Part shown: positions 9,714-32,099 of the stretch, piece after piece | Layout: each line of letters starts with the position of its first letter | Numbering within the stretch: position 1 is the stretch's first letter | DNA from: Puccinia triticina | Taxonomy: Eukaryota > Basidiomycota > Pucciniomycetes > Pucciniales > Pucciniaceae | Assembly: GCF_026914185.1 (NCBI RefSeq) | Contig: NC_070560.1 | Coordinates: 6,687,501 to 6,751,500, forward strand | Reading direction: 5' to 3' | DNA length: 64,000 bases | The notes under the pieces: model-generated | The model's database searches: none | What the model was told of the DNA's origin: nothing | The model's input: the letters and a program-made list of their open reading frames with translations, nothing else | Translations under genes and position numbers: made by a program

Positions 9714-9949
9714 TTTTATAGGGAGTTGAAAAATCGACTCCCATAAATTAATTTATTGATTCCCAAAACGTGTTTACGTTGCGGGGACCGTCTCACGACG
9801 TCCACCCCGGGTCCACGGCACCAAATTTTGACGCGCGCGGATTTTGGGAGTCGGAAAATTGATTCCGCTACCCAGAATGGGAGTCGGAATTTTAATTTCA
9901 CAAAAAATGCCCAAAAATAAAGAGAAATTTATACCTCCTCACTGGGGCG

Positions 9950-10410
9950 CCCAAAGCCCCCCAAAATTTTAAAGCAGTCAGAAAGTTCTCTTAAGATCAC
10001 ATGGTGAGCTGCATGGCAGTAGAAAGCCCCAGGAAATGGGTGTGCTACTGTGGCTCTAATTTTGGGGATTTCCTACTAAGGAAATCCGCCAAAGCATTAG
10101 CTATGGTGCCCAAAAGCCCCCCAAAATTTTACAGTGGGCAGAAATACCGCTGAAAAGCACCTTGTGAGCTTCTTGGCAGTAGCACACCCCAGGCAAGTCA
10201 CGTGCAACTGGGGGTCTAATTTGGCGGATTTCCTACTAAGGAAATCCGCCAGAGCCAGCTATGCCCCAAAGCCCCCCAAAGTTTTACAGTGGGCAGAAAT
10301 ACCGCTGAAAAGCACCTTGTGAGCTTCTTGGCAGTATCACACCCCAGGCAAGTCACGTGCAACTGAGGGCCTAATTTGGCGGATTTCCTACTAAGGATAT
10401 CCGCCAGAAC
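9950..10410. repeat. Tandem repeat of about 150 bp within the left foldback arm
   Basis: Three units follow each other at about 9955-10100, 10108-10255 and 10263-10407. Each contains GCCCCCCAAA, a stretch with GCAGAAATACCGCTGAAAAG in units 2 and 3, CACCCCAGG and then the short hairpin GGCGGATTTCCTACTAAGG followed by its complement. The right arm carries mirrored units between about 11090 and 11590. Confidence 0.75.
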
Positions 10411-10535
10411 CAGCTACTGTGCTGCAAAGTGCACCAAATTTTTGATCATCAAGTTAAATAATCTGGACTAAAACATTTAGCTGCAAGGCAGTAGCCCACC
10501 AACAGAAATAATTTTGAGTCAGCTGGGGCTTTTGG

Positions 10536-10985
10536 TCATATCTACGAGTAATTGCCTCCGCCATAGTTATTAGTCCCTCCGCCACAGTTATTGGTCCCTC
10601 TGCCACAGCAATTTGTCCCTCTGCCACAGTTAGTAGTCCCTCCTCCAAATTGAATAGTGCCTCTGACACAGTTATTAGTCCCTCTGCCACAGTTATTAGT
10701 CCCCCCGCCACATTTATTGGTCCCTCCACCAGCTATTAGTCCCTCTGCCTATTAAATGTGGCAGAGGGACTAATATCTGTGGCAGACACACTATTAACTG
10801 TGGTTGAGGGACTAATAACTGTAGCGGAGGGACTAATAACTGTGGCGGAGGGACTAATAACTGCAGCGGGGGACTATTAAATTTGGCGGAGGGACTACGA
10901 GCTGTGGCATAGGGACAAATTACTGTAGCAGAGGGACCAATAACTATGGCGGAGGGACTAATAACTATGGCGGAGGCAATTAGTC
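10536..10985. repeat. Central minisatellite, about 21-bp unit, switching strand near 10750
   Basis: Left of about 10750 the unit reads as GTCCCTCYGCCACAGTTATTA; right of it the reverse complement (GGGACTAATAACTGTGGCGGA type) repeats. There are roughly ten imperfect units on each side. The 21-bp period keeps a reading frame open, so a 91-codon ORF with a VAEGLIT repeat appears by chance. Confidence 0.8.
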
Positions 10986-11822
10986 GTAGATATGACCAAA
11001 AGCCCCAGCTGGCTCAAACTTATTCCTGTTGGTGGGTTACCGCCTTGCAGCTAAACTTTTAGTACAGATGATTTAACTTGATGATCAAAAATTTGATGCA
11101 CTTTGCAGCACAGTAGCTGGTTCTGGCGGATATCCTTAGTAGGAAATCTGCCAAATTGGGCCCCCAGTTGCACGTGACTTGCCTGGGGTGTGATACTTCC
11201 AAGAAGCTCACAAGGTGCTTTTCAGCGGTATTTCTGCCCACTGTAAAATTTTGGGGGGCTTTTGGGCACCATAGCTAATGCTTTGGCGGATTTCCTTAGT
11301 AGGAAATCCCCAAAATTAGAGCCACAGTAGCACACCCATTTCCTGGGGCTTTCTACTGCCATGCAGCTCACCATGTGCTCTTAAGAGAACTTTCTGACTG
11401 CTTTAAAATTTTGGGGGGCTTTGGGGCACCATAGCTAATGCTTTGGCGGAATTCCTTAGTAGGAAATCCCCAAAATTAGAGCCACAATAGCACACCCATT
11501 TCCTGGGGTGTGCTACTGCTGTGCAGCTCACCATGTGCTCCTAAGATCACTTTCTGACTGCTGTAAAATTTTGGGGGGCTTTGGGCGCCCCAGTGAGGAG
11601 GTATAAATTTTTCTTTATTTTTGGGCATTTTTTGTGAAATTAAAATTCCGACTCCCATTCTGGATAGCGGAATTAATTTTCCGACTCCCAAAATCCGCGC
11701 GCGTCAAAATTTGGTGCCGCGGACCCGGGGTGGACGTCGTGAGACAGTCCCCGCAACGTAAACACATTTTGGGAGTCGATAAATTAATTTGTGGGAGTCA
11801 ATTTTTCAACTCCCATTTTATA

Positions 11823-26285: not shown

Positions 26286-28083
26286 ATGGTTGAAGAAATG
26301 GCAAAGCAATCGGCCAAGAGACTCAACAAGTCGGCAGATATTCCAAGTGCACCAGAGGCACCTGTCGAAGGAGCATTAGGACGTGGTATCCAACATCCAG
26401 GGGCGGGCGCGGCAGATCAAGAAGCGGTTCGTGAGATAGGGACGGAGAACTTAAGTGGTTAGTTCTCCTTCGATGGGGTGAAGCAACCAAAGTAGCTGGT
26501 TAGCTGATTCAAATCTTCATGCGGATTCTTTCTGTAAAGGTGACGCTATGACGAAGGGCAAGGATGCGTCAAATGACACCAAAAGTGAAGATAGTTTCAA
26601 GGGTTAGTCATCGCTATCTTATAGCTCCCAAAGTCGCTGGGTAGCATAAAGATCAATTATAATATCAATCGTATTTTGCTTGATATTGATTCTCGTCATT
26701 TTATATTTAAATAATGAATCGTATTTTGCTCGATGTCATTTAGAGATTCCGAATCCTTCAAAAGATAGTCAAAATCAAGATATGGCATCCCGTTACAAGG
26801 CCATCTTGTCTAATTTACCGTTAATAGTTGATCCGGACGTGGTGACTGTGACCGATCCCTCCCTAGTCGGCAAAACGACTGTGACCGATCCCTCCAATCT
26901 AGTTGGCAACACCGCTAGCACCATCAGTAACATGGCTGCTCAAGACAAGACGGATCGTCAAGAGATTTGGGAGCGAGCTAGAGAAGCCTTCGATAAAGGA
27001 GATAAAAAGTCTACCGACTTCTTCTTGAGATTATACAGAAAGATGGATAACAATACTTCTCTATTGGCCCCAGATAAACCAGATCTCTTAAGATCTTGTT
27101 CAAACGACGCGGTCAACCCGGCAGTTAACGCGGTGAAGAGACCTGTCGACAAAACGACAATTGTGTTCATCAAGGGGTCTCTACCTAATCACTTTGATGT
27201 CGGATTTACTCCATACTTTGATCGCAACATCCGGGAGTTCCGTGGACCCATTCCTTTAACAATTTTCGATAAGAATTGGCAACAAGACGCTATTCACTAT
27301 TACACTAATCGAAGATCGAGAGGGGATGAGAAGGATGGGAATTACATCGGTTACGAGTATCCAAACGAATGGACGCAGACGTTCAGTAAATGGACGACAA
27401 ATCATCGTAATTTCTACATAACTTTCAGAGATATGTATGGTTATACGGAATTTGCGAAATGGATCTTGGTTCATAAAGAAAATGTGGACAAGATTGTTGG
27501 GGAGGAAGGATTCATGACGGCCTTTCGATACGATATGATCGTGCGACAAAATGCCTTTTCCTATCAAGTAAAGACCGATTCAGGTGAAATATCAGCCGTG
27601 GATATTTCTATGTATCGGGACGATGTCAAGCGGGAGGCTTGGCGGATCACTTTGTCCCTCGGGGAGAATGACAAAACGGACAATCCCTATGCGATTGGTG
27701 CTAAGAAATTCGGTTTTGATCCGAATACGGGCAAGCAACGCGTTAAAGCTCAGAAAGTAGGAGAAGATCAACCAAGGAACAAATCTGTCTCTGGACGCGG
27801 GAGGGGCGGCCATCGTAGTAGAGGGTTTGGCGAAAGGTGGGGTCAAGAAAGACGCAACTCAGATTACGGAGGTTATCATGATTACCACCAAGAAGAAAAT
27901 TTTTACAAACGACCGAGAGACCATGGATATGGAGAAGGCCAAGGGGGTAGAGGAAACAATTATGGAGGTTATCATGGCGCCTATAATAGGGATCGTGGCG
28001 GCTATGGAAAGGATCAAGGAACCTCCAGGGGTTTTAAGAAGAAAGACAATTCCTCTTCTTCAGCTAAAGACAAAGAGAACTAG
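26286..28083 (+). CDS. ORF1 (gag-like) of the DIRS-like element, two introns
   Basis: Three exons join in phase to about 524 aa: 26286-26457, 26540-26602 and 26744-28083. Both introns have GT donors of the form G/GTTAGT and AG acceptors, and each junction keeps the frame, which argues for real splicing. The second exon and start of the third give DSFKEIPNPSKDSQNQ. The C-terminal 110 residues are rich in Gly, Arg and Tyr (GRGRGGHRSRGFG, NNYGGYHGAYN), as expected for RNA binding by a gag-like protein. The central part, with FTPYFDRNIREFRGPIPL, is not a domain I recognise. If splicing is wrong, translation could start within exon 3 and give a protein of about 430 aa or more. Confidence 0.7.
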
Positions 28084-28268
28084 TGGGCCTTTTTCTCCCA
28101 TCCTTTTTAAAGAATTTTTTGACTTCCTGTTGTTACCTTGTGGTTGAAATTGCACGGTTTGCGGGGCGCCTCATTGTTAGCCGTCATTCCTGACGTTGGT
28201 TGCATTTTTCATCTCTGGTTATTTTTAATTTTTGTTCTAAAAATAGTGTAGAGACTGTAAAATGAAGA

Positions 28269-28354
28269 TGTGTCTGGTGAGAGTCGAACTCACAACCTCA
28301 GCTATGCTGAGACACATACTAGAGTGCTGCCTTTACCAACTAGGCTACAGACGC
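28269..28354 (-). tRNA. Class II tRNA-like sequence inside LTR1
   Basis: This is the reverse-orientation copy of the 86-nt unit described for 28762-28847, with the same arms. It probably does not act as a normal tRNA gene because its anticodon stem is poorly paired. Confidence 0.5.
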
Positions 28355-28761
28355 TTGTGGCTGCCAGCTGGGTGGTTGGTTTGTAGTGCTCATGGGTCGA
28401 TCCAACAGCCCTCCATACTGTGGTGATACATCATGGTAGCAGACTAACAGACAACTCAACAAGCTACCTGAGCGCAACTCGCTTACAATAGAGACTTGAT
28501 GAATTTGTGAATGCTTACTTGTAAGACCACACAAACCCCTATAAGCCTACATCTAGATCACGGGTTCAATCCCTACACTGATCATCTTTCCTGGGTCTCA
28601 TTCCCACTCTCTCTTGGGGTCAATCCCCACTTCCCATCATGTAGCAAGGGGGGGTGTTGAGTTGTCTGTTAGTCTGCTACCATGATGTATCACCACAGTA
28701 TGGAGGGCTGTCGGATTGACCCATGAGCACTACCAACCAACCACCCATCTGGCAGCCACAA

Positions 28762-28847
28762 GCGTCTGTAGCCTAGTTGGTAAAGGCAGCACTCTAGTAT
28801 GTGTCTCAGCATAGCTGAGGTTGTGAGTTCGACTCTCACCAGACACA
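28762..28847 (+). tRNA. Class II tRNA-like sequence inside LTR2
   Basis: The acceptor strands GCGTCTG and CAGACAC pair with one mismatch. The D arm contains an A-box-like TAGCCTAGTTGG. A perfect variable arm (CTCAGC-ATA-GCTGAG) marks class II (Leu/Ser type), and the T arm GTGAG-TTCGACT-CTCAC gives a B box. The discriminator base is A, as in tRNA-Leu. The anticodon stem around CTCTAGTATG is weak, so no anticodon is assigned. A T4 run follows at 28854-28857, suitable as an RNA polymerase III stop. It is probably a tRNA-derived internal promoter captured by the LTR rather than a working tRNA. Confidence 0.55.
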
Positions 28848-29183
28848 TCTTCATTTTACAGCCTCTACAGGTTATGAGCCCAGAGCTACCTGAGCGCTAC
28901 TTGCTTACAATAGAGACTTGATGAATTTGTGAATGCTTACTTGTAAGACCACGCAAACCCCTATAAGCCTACATCTAGATCACGGGTTCAATCCCTACGC
29001 TGATCATCTTTCCTGGGTCTCATTCCCACTCTCTCTTGGGGTCAATCCCCACTTCCCATCATGTAGCAAGGGGGGGTGTTGAGTTGTCTGTTAGTCTGCT
29101 ACCATGATGTATCACCACAGTATGGAGGGCTGTTGGATCGACCCATGAGCACTACCAACCAACCACCCAGCTGGCAGCCACAA

Positions 29184-29270
29184 GCGTCTGTAGCCTAGTT
29201 GGTAAAAGGCAGCACTCTAGTATGTGTCTCAGCATAGCTGAGGTTGTGAGTTCGACTCTCACCAGACACA
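29184..29270 (+). tRNA. Class II tRNA-like sequence inside LTR3
   Basis: This is the same unit as in LTR2 with one extra A in the D loop (GGTAAAAGGC), giving 87 nt. All other arms and the downstream T4 run are kept. Confidence 0.5.
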
Positions 29271-29334
29271 TCTTCATTTTACAGTCTCTACAAATAGCTG
29301 GCAGGACAATGTAACATTGGTTAAAGACACATGT

Positions 29335-30981
29335 ATGATTGACGGGATAGTCCCGAAATTACCTGTTGCGGTTAAGTGTGAGATGAACTTGTCCGAGTGG
29401 GAGACCGCTCTCAAGGAGAGCAATCTACTCCCGGAATACAAAGACATTTTACATGGTTTTGAATTCGGATTCAACCAAGGAATCCCAGAACACAGATTAG
29501 GTGAACTTGATTGCTTTACTCCGGACAATCATGCATCATCGGAGAAAGCCAAACCTAAGATTGAGGAATCCATCGCAAAGGAGTTAGCAGCTCAGCAAAT
29601 GTTTGGTCCGTTCTCAAAACAACAGATGATAAACGCCTTCGGATTCTTCAGGTCGAACCCTCTGGGAGCCGTGGTTAACGGGGACGGGGCAATTCGTCCA
29701 ATCAATGATTTGTCCTTTCCAAGGAATGATCCGTCCATCTCTTCCGTGAACTCTTTCGTAAATAAGGCGGACTTTGAAACGACGTGGGACGACTTCAATT
29801 GGGTTTCAAAATTTTTCGCCGAAGATGCTAGACCGCTTGAATTGGCGCTGTTTGACTGGGAAAAAGCCTACCGGCAGATTCCAACTCCCTTGTGCCAATG
29901 GAAGTATTTGACCGTTAAGGACTTCAACGGCAATTTCCTCGTCGACACGCGCATTACTTTTGGCGGAGTCGCAGGATGTGGATCCTTCGGCCGACCCGCA
30001 GATGCTTGGAAGCAGATTATGAAGAACCACTTCGATTTGGTAACGATTTTTAGATGGGTGGACGATAATTTGTTCATTAGAATTCAAGGAAGCGCCGTAA
30101 CCATGGAAGAAGTGGTAGAAAAGTCCACGAAACTAGGAGTTCTGACAAACAAATCAAAGTATTCTCCTTTCAGTAACGAACAGAAGTTCATTGGGTTTGT
30201 GTGGAACGGTGTTGACAAAACGGTACGGCTCCCAGACGGGAAAATCCAAAAGCACCTACAACAGATCCAACCGTATCTATCTAAAGGCGCGCGGTTCGAT
30301 CATGAAGATGTCGAGGTCCTAGTTGGACGGCTCAATCATGTCTCTTATATACTACCGCACTTGCGGTGCCATCTAAACTCACTGTATAGATGGCTGATGT
30401 CCTGGCAATACAGAAGGGCATTACGGGAAACACCCCCTGATGTTTTGGCTGACCTTGAAGTGTGGAAGTCAACACTCGAGAACTTCGAAAACACCAGAAT
30501 AATCAATTACGGACCTCCTCTTGATATTGGTTGGGTAGGAGACGCTTCGACGTCATTCGGGATCGGTGTGCTGGTGGGGAAACACTGGGCACAGTTTAAG
30601 CTTCACAACCCTGGAGACGGTAAGACCCGAATCTCCTATCTGGAGACGGTTGCAATTCGCCTCGGCCTCCTTATGGTCCTCAAGCTACGAAGCCAGAGGG
30701 GGAAGTCGTTAGTAGTATGGACTGACAATACAACAACCAAAAATGGAATCAACAATAAGAAATCGCGCGATATACACTCAAACGGGGAGTGGATTGAGAT
30801 TCAGAAACTCCTGATCAGGGAGGGTATAAACTTAATAGCTAAAAGAGTCACATCAAAGGATAATAAAGCGGACGCCCTGTCGCGAGGGATACGCTTGGGT
30901 CAGAATGTGAAACATCAATTGGTTGTTCCCATCCCATCGGATCTTGACCACATCTTGTCCCAAGTTGTCTTCTTAATCTGA
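29335..30981 (+). CDS. Reverse transcriptase-RNase H (ORF2) of the DIRS-like element
   Basis: The frame is open from the insertion edge (29293) to 30981; the first ATG is at 29335. Reverse transcriptase motifs are RPINDLSFPRNDPSISSVN, then LFDWEKAYRQIP (motif A), FGGVAGCGSFGRPADAW (motif B) and RWVDDNLF (motif C, with V in place of the usual M/A before DD). RNase H follows (GDASTSFGIGVLVG; YLETVAI; WTDNTTTKNG; KADALSRG). This order and the divergent FxDD/WVDD-type box are usual in DIRS-order elements, which copy RNA and integrate as circles with a tyrosine recombinase. Before the TRIM inserted, the frame ran upstream to at least 28194 without an ATG, so its translation may need reinitiation or splicing. 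No stop or frameshift is seen. Confidence 0.9.
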   Translation: MIDGIVPKLPVAVKCEMNLSEWETALKESNLLPEYKDILHGFEFGFNQGIPEHRLGELDCFTPDNHASSEKAKPKIEESIAKELAAQQMFGPFSKQQMINAFGFFRSNPLGAVVNGDGAIRPINDLSFPRNDPSISSVNSFVNKADFETTWDDFNWVSKFFAEDARPLELALFDWEKAYRQIPTPLCQWKYLTVKDFNGNFLVDTRITFGGVAGCGSFGRPADAWKQIMKNHFDLVTIFRWVDDNLFIRIQGSAVTMEEVVEKSTKLGVLTNKSKYSPFSNEQKFIGFVWNGVDKTVRLPDGKIQKHLQQIQPYLSKGARFDHEDVEVLVGRLNHVSYILPHLRCHLNSLYRWLMSWQYRRALRETPPDVLADLEVWKSTLENFENTRIINYGPPLDIGWVGDASTSFGIGVLVGKHWAQFKLHNPGDGKTRISYLETVAIRLGLLMVLKLRSQRGKSLVVWTDNTTTKNGINNKKSRDIHSNGEWIEIQKLLIREGINLIAKRVTSKDNKADALSRGIRLGQNVKHQLVVPIPSDLDHILSQVVFLI

Positions 30982-31052: not shown

Positions 31053-32099
31053 ATGGGCAGATTGGCCTCTGTTAATTTGAAAGACTTCACGTCCACTGGC
31101 CATACCTTAAAGAAGCCTTCGGATTTGGACCTCTTGGTATTACAAGGGTGGGACGCAGGCACACTACGTAGCTACAATTCGGCGGTAAGGAAGTTCCTCC
31201 TCTTTAAGCGGGCGTCTGGCGACACTCGTTTCGAGCTCCCGGCCACGACTGAAGACATCTACCTGTTCTGCCTATGGGCAGGAAGAAAACCAGATACAAT
31301 TGATTCACACGAAATCTCCTCCACTACGATAGAGAAATATTTGCACGGCCTGAAAGCCTGGCACCTTTTCCACGACGTGAAGTACCCACAAACGGCGGAG
31401 AAGAAAATCAAACTCATGTTAAAAGGCTTGGCTAAAAGAGACGCCTTGCGCCCAGCGACCAAAAAGAAGAAAGCCGTCATGATATACGACCTCATTGCGT
31501 TAGTCAGGGAACTATTGAGTGGCGACGCGTTCGATTCGGCACTCATAGACCTGTGCGTGGTGGCCTTTTGGGGCTTGGCGAGGTTAGGAGAATTAACATA
31601 TACGTCAAAATCGGGAATTCCGAGTTTGGACGGAGGAATTCGAAAATCAGACGTGGTTTTTGCGGGTGACGGATCCACAGCAGCCATATCCTTACGGTTC
31701 GCTAAAACCGCCGACACGCGCGAAGTCCAACACTTGCGGCTGACGGCAACCGGTAACCTGCTCTGTCCGCTGAAGGCGATCAAGAGGAGGCTAGAAAACG
31801 GAAGCTCGCGCGATGAATCCTTATTCGGCTTCAACTCATCCATTGGCCGGGTCAACCTGACCAAAAATATGGTGCGAACACGTTTGACGCGGGCGTGGGT
31901 GACAATAGGAAGAAGCGGAATATCGGGTCACTCTTTTAGGGTAGGGGGGGCTTCGATTAGGAACGCACTGGGCGTGGACATCAAGACCATCTGCGGTTTA
32001 GGCCGGTGGAAGTCTTGCAGTTACAAACTCTATATCAGGTCCTACTCCGCTGCCGAGCTCTCCGCGACTATCGCCGCCCTGGAATTGTTGGATAAATGA
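31053..32099 (+). CDS. Tyrosine recombinase (ORF3) of the DIRS-like element
   Basis: The protein has 348 aa and starts 71 nt after ORF2. An N-terminal helical, core-binding-like part (DAGTLRSYNSAVRKFLLF) is followed by the catalytic part: Arg177 in GLARLGEL, His293 and Arg296 in GHSFRVGGAS, Trp319 in GLGRWKS, and Tyr327 or Tyr331 in YKLYIRSY. This is the R-H-x-x-R-Y set of tyrosine recombinases. The enzyme would integrate circular cDNA, replacing the DDE integrase of LTR elements. The reading frame is intact. A Crypton would carry such an enzyme alone, but here the linked reverse transcriptase settles the DIRS order. Confidence 0.92.
   Translation: MGRLASVNLKDFTSTGHTLKKPSDLDLLVLQGWDAGTLRSYNSAVRKFLLFKRASGDTRFELPATTEDIYLFCLWAGRKPDTIDSHEISSTTIEKYLHGLKAWHLFHDVKYPQTAEKKIKLMLKGLAKRDALRPATKKKKAVMIYDLIALVRELLSGDAFDSALIDLCVVAFWGLARLGELTYTSKSGIPSLDGGIRKSDVVFAGDGSTAAISLRFAKTADTREVQHLRLTATGNLLCPLKAIKRRLENGSSRDESLFGFNSSIGRVNLTKNMVRTRLTRAWVTIGRSGISGHSFRVGGASIRNALGVDIKTICGLGRWKSCSYKLYIRSYSAAELSATIAALELLDK

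What the first reader, a model, noticed from the sequence alone, without database searches (positions are those of the whole stretch)
28247..29292. TRIM-like LTR element whose LTRs each carry a tRNA-like gene
Each 215-bp LTR contains an 86-nt class II tRNA-like unit with A box, perfect variable arm, B box and a T4 stop, starting 107 nt into the LTR. Cassandra TRIMs in plants carry a 5S rRNA promoter in their LTRs; a tRNA-derived counterpart in a fungal TRIM is something I do not know as described. It could allow RNA polymerase III transcription of the element. All three copies keep the unit.
Basis: partly seen in the sequence, partly recalled or inferred. Interest (0 to 1): 0.9.

Follow-up and report, generated by a model that had tools for sequence, protein, structure and literature searches.

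The report
Rearranged tRNA-bearing mini retrotransposon (Helenus)
This is a tiny non-coding retrotransposon of a known type (Helenus), in what is likely a rust fungus, whose terminal repeats carry a tRNA-like unit that is predicted to act as its promoter; this copy has one repeat flipped, likely by a reverse-transcription accident, and a hybrid copy elsewhere in the genome likely points to the Copia element that helps it move.

Summary
At 28247-29292 there are three ~215-bp LTRs, each with an 86-87-nt class II tRNA-like unit, A box, B box and T4. The idea is not new: TRIMs with tRNA-like LTRs were published as Helenus (Kojima 2024, PMC10886601), with 113 families in rusts. Our family fits: 637-bp unit, 5-bp TSDs, iMet anticodon-loop PBS, polypurine tract. 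It may be LTR-1_PTrit itself, which I could not check.

The whole went in as one unit: TSD AATAG, with two empty sites elsewhere. A genomic tRNA-Met pairs with those 14 nt. The join thus lies between the U3 start and the nucleotide where minus-strand synthesis would meet the primer tRNA. That suggests two reverse-transcription termini joined head to head and integrated through two U5 ends.

Elsewhere, L091 has a Copia LTR at its 5' end, TRIM internal region and LTR behind it, and TSD CAATT: the expected product of intermolecular plus-strand transfer at the PBS. TRIM and Copia were likely reverse-transcribed in one particle.

Pol III transcription is predicted, not tested. The tRNA-like unit shows no extra conservation across copies.

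The parts
28242..28246 (.). left target-site duplication AATAG
   Evidence: single copy at two empty sites L093, L094
28247..28461 (-). LTR 'L', inverted; U5 end faces the flank, U3 start (TGTTGAG) faces inward
28269..28354 (-). tRNA-like unit of LTR L
   Evidence: RF00005 42.8 bits, ARAGORN
28259..28262 (-). T4 (AAAA on +) of LTR L
28461..28462 (.). head-to-head junction CAACTCAACA|AGCTACCTGAG: U3 start joined to internal position 15; found once in the genome
   Evidence: (1 place, up to 2 mismatches)
28462..28654 (+). internal region 'a', positions 15-207, lacking exactly the 14-nt PBS
28643..28654 (+). polypurine tract AGCAAGGGGGGG of region a
   Evidence: the same tract before LTR d shares a 21-nt run with Copia L095
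28655..28869 (+). LTR 'b' (middle)
28762..28847 (+). tRNA-like unit of LTR b (class II, A and B boxes)
28854..28857 (+). T4, possible Pol III stop
28870..28883 (+). primer-binding site GGTTATGAGCCCAG, 14 consecutive pairs with the anticodon arm of a genomic tRNA-Met(CAT)
   Evidence: tRNA gene in L101
28884..29076 (+). internal region 'c' (rest), no TTTT, ends in polypurine tract 29065-29076
29077..29292 (+). LTR 'd' (right)
29184..29270 (+). tRNA-like unit of LTR d (one extra A)
   Evidence: RF00005 40.8 bits
29277..29280 (+). T4 of LTR d
29293..29297 (.). right target-site duplication AATAG

Best explanation
This is a Helenus-type TRIM (a non-coding LTR retrotransposon with a tRNA-like unit in each LTR) whose RNA is predicted to be made by RNA polymerase III and which is likely copied and inserted by the enzymes of a Copia element, and the copy in this window is a three-LTR complex, likely formed when two incomplete cDNAs were joined head to head. 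Predicted life cycle: Pol III would start at the tRNA-like unit of the 5' LTR, read through its T4 and stop at the T4 of the 3' LTR, giving an RNA with repeated ends. Initiator tRNA-Met, held by its anticodon arm on the 14-nt PBS, would prime the minus strand, and the polypurine tract the plus strand; a Copia integrase would insert the cDNA with a 5-bp duplication. Shown: anatomy, TSDs, PBS complementarity to a genomic tRNA-Met, polypurine tract, empty sites, junction positions, and the TRIM/Copia hybrid L091. Inferred: in the window copy, minus-strand synthesis stopped at the primer tRNA (internal position 15); that end was joined to the U3 start of an LTR-length duplex (plus-strand strong-stop), and integrase used the two remaining U5 ends. 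Inferred: L091 arose when plus-strand strong-stop DNA of the Copia was transferred at the shared PBS to TRIM minus-strand DNA in one particle.
For: Family anatomy: 82 distinct insertions in 89 fetched loci; 48 are LTR-internal-LTR (44 of 48 with exact 5-bp TSD), 14 are solo LTRs (12 of 14 with TSD). Chance 5-bp match between flanks of different insertions: 7 of 6642. PBS: a tRNA-Met(CAT) gene with a 10-nt intron (L101); its spliced form pairs with internal positions 1-14 and not 15, and the window junction begins at position 15. One-unit insertion: TSD AATAG and two copies of the host element with a single AATAG. Outer LTRs L and d differ by one substitution, L-b by five, b-d by four. A second head-to-head complex, L042, has two U5 ends and no substitutions among its three LTRs. 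Hybrid L091: CAATT-Copia LTR (196 bp)-PBS-TRIM internal-TRIM LTR-CAATT. Its 5' LTR matches LTRs found in pairs about 5 kb apart at 93% over 196 of 196 nt or 99-100% over 179 of 196 nt. One such element (L095) has TSD GAAGA, a PBS sharing 12 nt, an identical 21-nt polypurine tract/U3 run, and gag, integrase and RVT_2 domains.
Against: No transcript data: Pol III use is untested. The tRNA-like unit is not more conserved across copies than U3 (mean per-site diversity 0.0147 against 0.0158), and 44 of 128 LTRs lack a strict B box, 36 of these 44 reading GTTTGACTC, a C-to-T change at its CpG. A T4 also lies in the 5' LTR, so read-through is required. Absence of T4 from U3 and internal region is not significant (29% of mononucleotide shuffles have none). 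The unit's folding is only modestly better than shuffles (19 of 200 fold as well). Outer-LTR similarity is weak evidence: 7.6% of between-element pairs differ by at most one substitution. Internal regions a and c are different haplotypes (4 differences), so one uniform template is excluded. L042 lacks a perfect TSD. Two other three-LTR copies, L022 and L069, do not show outer LTRs more alike than the rest. TRIM and L095 share no clear similarity outside the PBS and polypurine tract/U3 start, and other LTR elements share the PBS, so the partner may be a lineage rather than one element.
Confidence: 0.75

Rival explanations
1. The inverted LTR arose after integration: a normal three-LTR tandem copy inserted, and its 5' LTR was later flipped and the PBS lost by recombination or repair.
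For: Three-LTR tandem copies with TSDs exist (L022, L069; 2 of 82 insertions).
Against: It needs breakpoints exactly at TSD|U5, at the U3 start and at the PBS edge, all of which are natural reverse-transcription or integrase boundaries. L042 shows the same head-to-head topology independently.
Confidence: 0.15
2. Autointegration: integrase joined the U3 end of a tandem cDNA to a site inside the same cDNA, and the resulting molecule then integrated.
For: The junction starts exactly after the CA of the U3 end (CAACA|AGCTA), as a strand-transfer product would.
Against: A strand transfer at internal position 15 would leave PBS sequence outside the flipped LTR, but the left end is exactly at U5. Hitting the PBS edge would be a coincidence.
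Confidence: 0.2
3. The unit is a passenger: the TRIM is transcribed by RNA polymerase II from U3, and the tRNA-like sequence is a SINE or tRNA relic without function.
For: No excess conservation, 44 of 128 LTRs lack a strict B box, defective anticodon loop.
Against: A box in 127 of 128 and T4 in 125 of 128 copies; the same design occurs in Helenus families of many lineages (PMC10886601); the related Cassandra is transcribed from its 5S unit (as stated in that paper).
Confidence: 0.2
4. A true tRNA gene recombined into one LTR by chance.
For: None.
Against: 117 of 128 full-length LTRs elsewhere in the genome carry the unit.
Confidence: 0.01

Closest known systems
Helenus (TRIMp3), Kojima 2024, PMC10886601; possibly LTR-1_PTrit or a close relative
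   Same: tRNA-like unit in LTR, <1000 bp, iMet anticodon-loop PBS, polypurine tract, 5-bp TSD, rust host, hundreds of copies. LTR-1_PTrit has an internal region of 198+12 bp (ours 207) and 529 LTRs. The genome here (122.8 Mb in 18 contigs) matches P. triticina haplotypes (121.6-123.9 Mb, 18 chromosomes; PMC10627818, passages read).
   Different: Identity with a named family not checked (supplementary files not available). The window copy is a head-to-head three-LTR complex; the words 'inverted', 'chimer', 'template switch' and 'three LTRs' do not occur in the Helenus paper's main text.
Cassandra TRIM (plants)
   Same: Pol III-type small-RNA gene inside the LTR.
   Different: 5S rRNA instead of a tRNA-like unit.
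Template-switching complexes, Sabot & Schulman 2007, PMC1950507
   Same: Three LTRs, shared flanking TSD, alike outer LTRs.
   Different: Here the left LTR is inverted and its PBS is missing. The word 'inverted' does not occur in that paper.
LTR swapping / chimeric nonautonomous elements of plants (VejuL, BARE2 as cited in PMC1950507; LTR swapping seen only in a search listing)
   Same: Two co-packaged RNAs giving a hybrid element, as proposed for L091.
   Different: Here the partner pair is a tRNA-bearing TRIM and a Copia in a fungus, with crossover at the PBS.

Membership tests
Helenus (TRIMp3) | tRNA-like sequence inside the LTR | tested here: met
   117 of 128 LTRs
Helenus (TRIMp3) | TRIM: two short LTRs, non-coding internal region, under 1000 bp | tested here: met
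   typical copy 637 bp, 48 of 82 insertions LTR-internal-LTR
Helenus (TRIMp3) | PBS to tRNA (rust families: mostly iMet anticodon loop) and polypurine tract | tested here: met
   14 consecutive pairs with a genomic tRNA-Met(CAT) (initiator type by its T loop, a recalled feature); AGCAAGGGGGGG before U3
Helenus (TRIMp3) | 5-bp TSD (fungal Helenus) | tested here: met
   59 of 82 insertions, 44 of 48 complete ones
Helenus (TRIMp3) | transcription by RNA polymerase III | not testable with these tools
   also unvalidated in PMC10886601
Helenus LTR-1_PTrit | sequence identity to the published consensus | not testable with these tools
   Repbase and supplementary files not available
Cassandra | 5S rRNA-derived unit in LTR | tested here: not met
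   only RF00005 at gathering threshold in the window
Template-switching complex (Sabot & Schulman) | flanking TSD around three LTRs | tested here: met
   AATAG, empty sites
Template-switching complex (Sabot & Schulman) | outer LTRs alike | tested here: met
   1 substitution against 4-5 to the middle LTR; chance about 8%
Template-switching complex (Sabot & Schulman) | two complete cores, internal LTR shared by two elements in one orientation | tested here: not met
   left LTR inverted, left core lacks the PBS

The most novel reading that the evidence does not exclude
The rust genome holds fossils of individual reverse-transcription steps of a Pol III-driven TRIM. L091 is a Copia-to-TRIM plus-strand transfer caught at the shared primer site, which names the helper lineage of a Helenus element from a single integrated molecule. 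The window copy and L042 show that cDNAs lacking a 5' LTR can be rescued by head-to-head joining, because the integrase accepts two U5 ends. Helenus would thus be a Pol III transcript packaged and copied inside Pol II-made Copia particles.
Probability: 0.5. Interest if true: 0.6.

Novelty: new member of a known kind. Interest (0 to 1): 0.42.

Why it matters
Kojima 2024 states that it is not known how TRIMs' dependence on their autonomous partner is maintained, and that there is no indication of the element that mobilises Cassandra. A TRIM/Copia hybrid with its own TSD is physical evidence for co-reverse transcription, and the approach (search for foreign LTR + PBS + TRIM internal region) can be applied to any TRIM. 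The window copy maps the PBS edge and the U3 start from a natural accident and suggests that two U5 ends suffice for integration. It is also a warning for annotation: units like this are counted as tRNA genes (PMC10886601, its Table 2), and inverted ends could be taken for those of a DNA transposon.

Tried and rejected
Rejected: chance tRNA insertion (unit in 117 of 128 LTRs); Cassandra (no 5S hit); fold-back DNA transposon (5-bp TSD, PBS, polypurine tract and PBS-edge junction fit an LTR element; 48 of 82 copies are plain LTR-internal-LTR); two nested insertions (one TSD, two empty sites).

Led nowhere: a Copia carrying the TRIM's internal leader (one exact pattern: no match; a diverged leader would be missed). 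Reciprocal hybrids, TRIM LTR + foreign internal region: 27 places matched. I fetched 4 of 27: two GCGCTGT-type (of 22 such places) and one TTAAGGT-type (of 3) are LTRs unrelated to the TRIM and without a tRNA match; one (L099) is a TRIM LTR + PBS running into unrelated DNA, undecided (neither ARAGORN nor Rfam at gathering score finds a tRNA in L099, although its LTR is 96% identical). Two iMet patterns found nothing before one search found one gene. Among the 128 LTR copies only the solo LTR L003 carries both rare alleles of LTR b, so no tandem donor was identified. Other weak Rfam matches around the internal region lie far below their gathering scores. Selection on the unit: none seen. The protein search was used only to place the organism (Puccinia-like); the species is inferred, not named by a tool.

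Full report
What is there. The best matches of one window gene (NPL4 type) are an unnamed protein at 99% and a Puccinia striiformis protein at 94%, each over 79% of the query. Size and chromosome number match Puccinia triticina haplotypes (121.6-123.9 Mb, 18 chromosomes; PMC10627818, passages), so the species is inferred. At 28247-29292 three repeats of 215-216 bp were found, each with an 86-87-nt tRNA-like unit scoring 42.8, 42.8 and 40.8 bits against RF00005. The unit folds into acceptor, D, anticodon, 6-bp variable and T arms, with only modest stability against shuffles (z -1.52, 19 of 200 fold as well). ARAGORN gives it a two-letter anticodon, so a working tRNA is unlikely. The loop reads TCTAGTAT; PMC10886601 lists 426 tRNA-Thr-AGT calls that are LTR-1_PTrit copies, which would fit, but that is inference.

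A family of hundreds. A search with the LTR gave 698 first-look candidates, of which the best 40 were scored; U5 end plus PBS gives 253 places with up to 2 mismatches. From 89 fetched loci I obtained 82 distinct insertions. The loci were the best LTR matches and listed PBS places, not a random sample: of the 253 PBS places 100 were listed, and 42 of those were not fetched in their own right. Of the 82 insertions, 48 are LTR-internal-LTR (44 of 48 with exact 5-bp TSD) and 14 are complete solo LTRs (12 of 14 with TSD). Two are direct three-LTR tandems (both with TSD), one is the window complex (TSD), one is L042 (no TSD), and 16 are incomplete (none with TSD). A typical copy is 637 bp: LTR 215, internal 207, LTR 215.

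Known kind. Kojima 2024 (PMC10886601; abstract, introduction, methods, results to the start of section 3.7 and discussion read, passages of the rest) named such TRIMs Helenus. It found 113 families in Pucciniales, reports 5-bp TSDs in fungi, and finds that most fungal PBSs match the anticodon loop of a mature, intron-spliced tRNA, chiefly iMet. I found one tRNA-Met(CAT) gene with a 10-nt intron in this genome; that it is the initiator rests on its T loop, a recalled feature. Its spliced anticodon arm pairs with internal positions 1-14 and fails at 15. Whether the family is LTR-1_PTrit itself (internal 198+12 bp, 529 LTRs in the paper) could not be checked.

The window copy is a head-to-head complex. 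Left to right it reads: AATAG, inverted LTR L, internal region a from position 15, LTR b, PBS, internal region c, LTR d, AATAG. The two copies of the host element at 95% identity (of 26 matches including the window itself) were fetched; both carry a single AATAG and no insert, so the complex entered as one unit. The junction CAACTCAACA|AGCTACCTGAG occurs once in the genome. Its two sides are the U3 start, where plus-strand synthesis begins, and the first nucleotide beyond the 14-nt tRNA pairing, where minus-strand synthesis would stop against the primer. Both outer ends are U5 ends. The simplest reading, which is inference, is joining of two reverse-transcription termini followed by integration through two U5 ends. 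Outer LTRs L and d differ by one substitution and differ from b by five and four. LTR b shares two rare alleles with one solo LTR, L003, and regions a and c are different haplotypes, so more than one template or a mixed tandem donor contributed. This support is modest: 7.6% of between-element LTR pairs are as close, and tandems L022 and L069 do not show the pattern.

A second case. L042 (C2:3370260) reads LTR-internal-LTR inverted, joined at LTR position 10 to internal position 80 of a 5'-incomplete copy. It again has two U5 ends and no substitutions among the three LTRs. Its flanks, TTGTT and TTGAG, are not a perfect TSD, which counts against a clean single integration.

The helper. A pattern for an LTR end other than ACA in front of the TRIM PBS found 3 places. 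L091 is complete: CAATT, a 196-bp LTR starting TGTTGAGTT and ending CTCATCA, PBS, TRIM internal region, TRIM LTR, CAATT. The foreign LTR matches LTRs found in pairs about 5 kb apart, at 93% over its full length or 99-100% over its first 179 nt. One such element, L095, has TSD GAAGA, LTRs with 3 differences, a PBS sharing 12 nt, the identical 21-nt run AGCAAGGGGGGGTGTTGAGTT across polypurine tract and U3 start, and Copia gag, integrase and RVT_2 domains in three separate open pieces. Its LTR and leader are otherwise unrelated to the TRIM and hold no tRNA match at gathering score. In normal reverse transcription both LTRs of one element come out the same; two different LTRs within one TSD are what transfer of Copia plus-strand strong-stop DNA onto TRIM minus-strand DNA at the PBS would give. 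L092 has another foreign LTR-like stretch (305 bp) in the same place but a truncated 3' LTR, so no TSD test is possible. L090 is a Copia with an inverted LTR-PBS junction and is not a TRIM hybrid.

Promoter. In the window's unit the sense strand of LTR b plus internal region has one TTTT, just behind the tRNA-like unit. Among copies, 59 of 60 internal regions and 125 of 128 LTRs (first 185 nt) have none elsewhere, but 29% of shuffles would show none either. A box 127, T4 125 and strict B box 84 of 128; of the 44 without it, 36 read GTTTGACTC. Per-site diversity in the unit is close to that in U3 (0.0147 against 0.0158). So the sequence permits Pol III transcription but does not demonstrate it.

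Literature limits. Searches for Helenus (only the 2024 paper and a 2026 meeting report, the latter seen in the listing alone), for complex or inverted LTR insertions (listings) and for LTR swapping (listing) turned up template-switching complexes in grasses (PMC1950507; abstract, results section and passages read), described without inverted LTRs. I found no description of a U5-U5 head-to-head complex or of a Helenus/Copia hybrid in these searches; the library lacks most subscription journals.

Verdict. Observation confirmed; kind already known; this copy is an unusual, probably reverse-transcription-born product, and the hybrid L091 is the most useful new piece.

Noticed in passing
window 26680-28083, 29317-30981, 31053-32099: The TRIM sits between the ORFs of a host element whose third ORF looks by eye like a tyrosine recombinase (DIRS/Ngaro type, recalled); none of the three ORFs has a Pfam match at E 0.001.
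   Followed up: partly
L096 31-383, L090 and L092 left of the PBS: LTRs of the Copia helper lineage carry a ~105-nt insert starting GT, followed by a second copy of a ~52-nt repeat ending CAG, like an intron in the LTR; L091 lacks it and L095 has only a 14-nt duplication there.
   Followed up: partly
L090 (C9:2722330): Copia-like gag/protease reading frame (by eye) fused to an oppositely oriented LTR plus PBS: another inverted retroelement junction.
   Followed up: no
L042 1095-2064 (C2:3370260): Second head-to-head TRIM complex with three LTRs free of substitutions but without a perfect TSD.
   Followed up: partly
window 9721-11814: 2.1-kb palindromic repeat (89% self-complementary) with internal direct repeats about 160 nt apart.
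   Followed up: no
L099 (C15:1423800-1424500): TRIM LTR and PBS that run into unrelated sequence 15 nt after the PBS start, with a CACCAGGGGGGG just behind; reciprocal hybrid or truncated relic.
   Followed up: partly
L097, L098 and 20 further places with the same 26-nt string: Another LTR element family with U5 end CTCTACA and the same iMet PBS; in the two copies read the LTR is unrelated and has no tRNA unit.
   Followed up: partly
LTR positions 176-177 across 128 copies: The CpG inside the B box is among the most variable sites (C to T in 39 of 128, G to A in 11 of 128), suggesting methylation-driven decay of the promoter box.
   Followed up: partly
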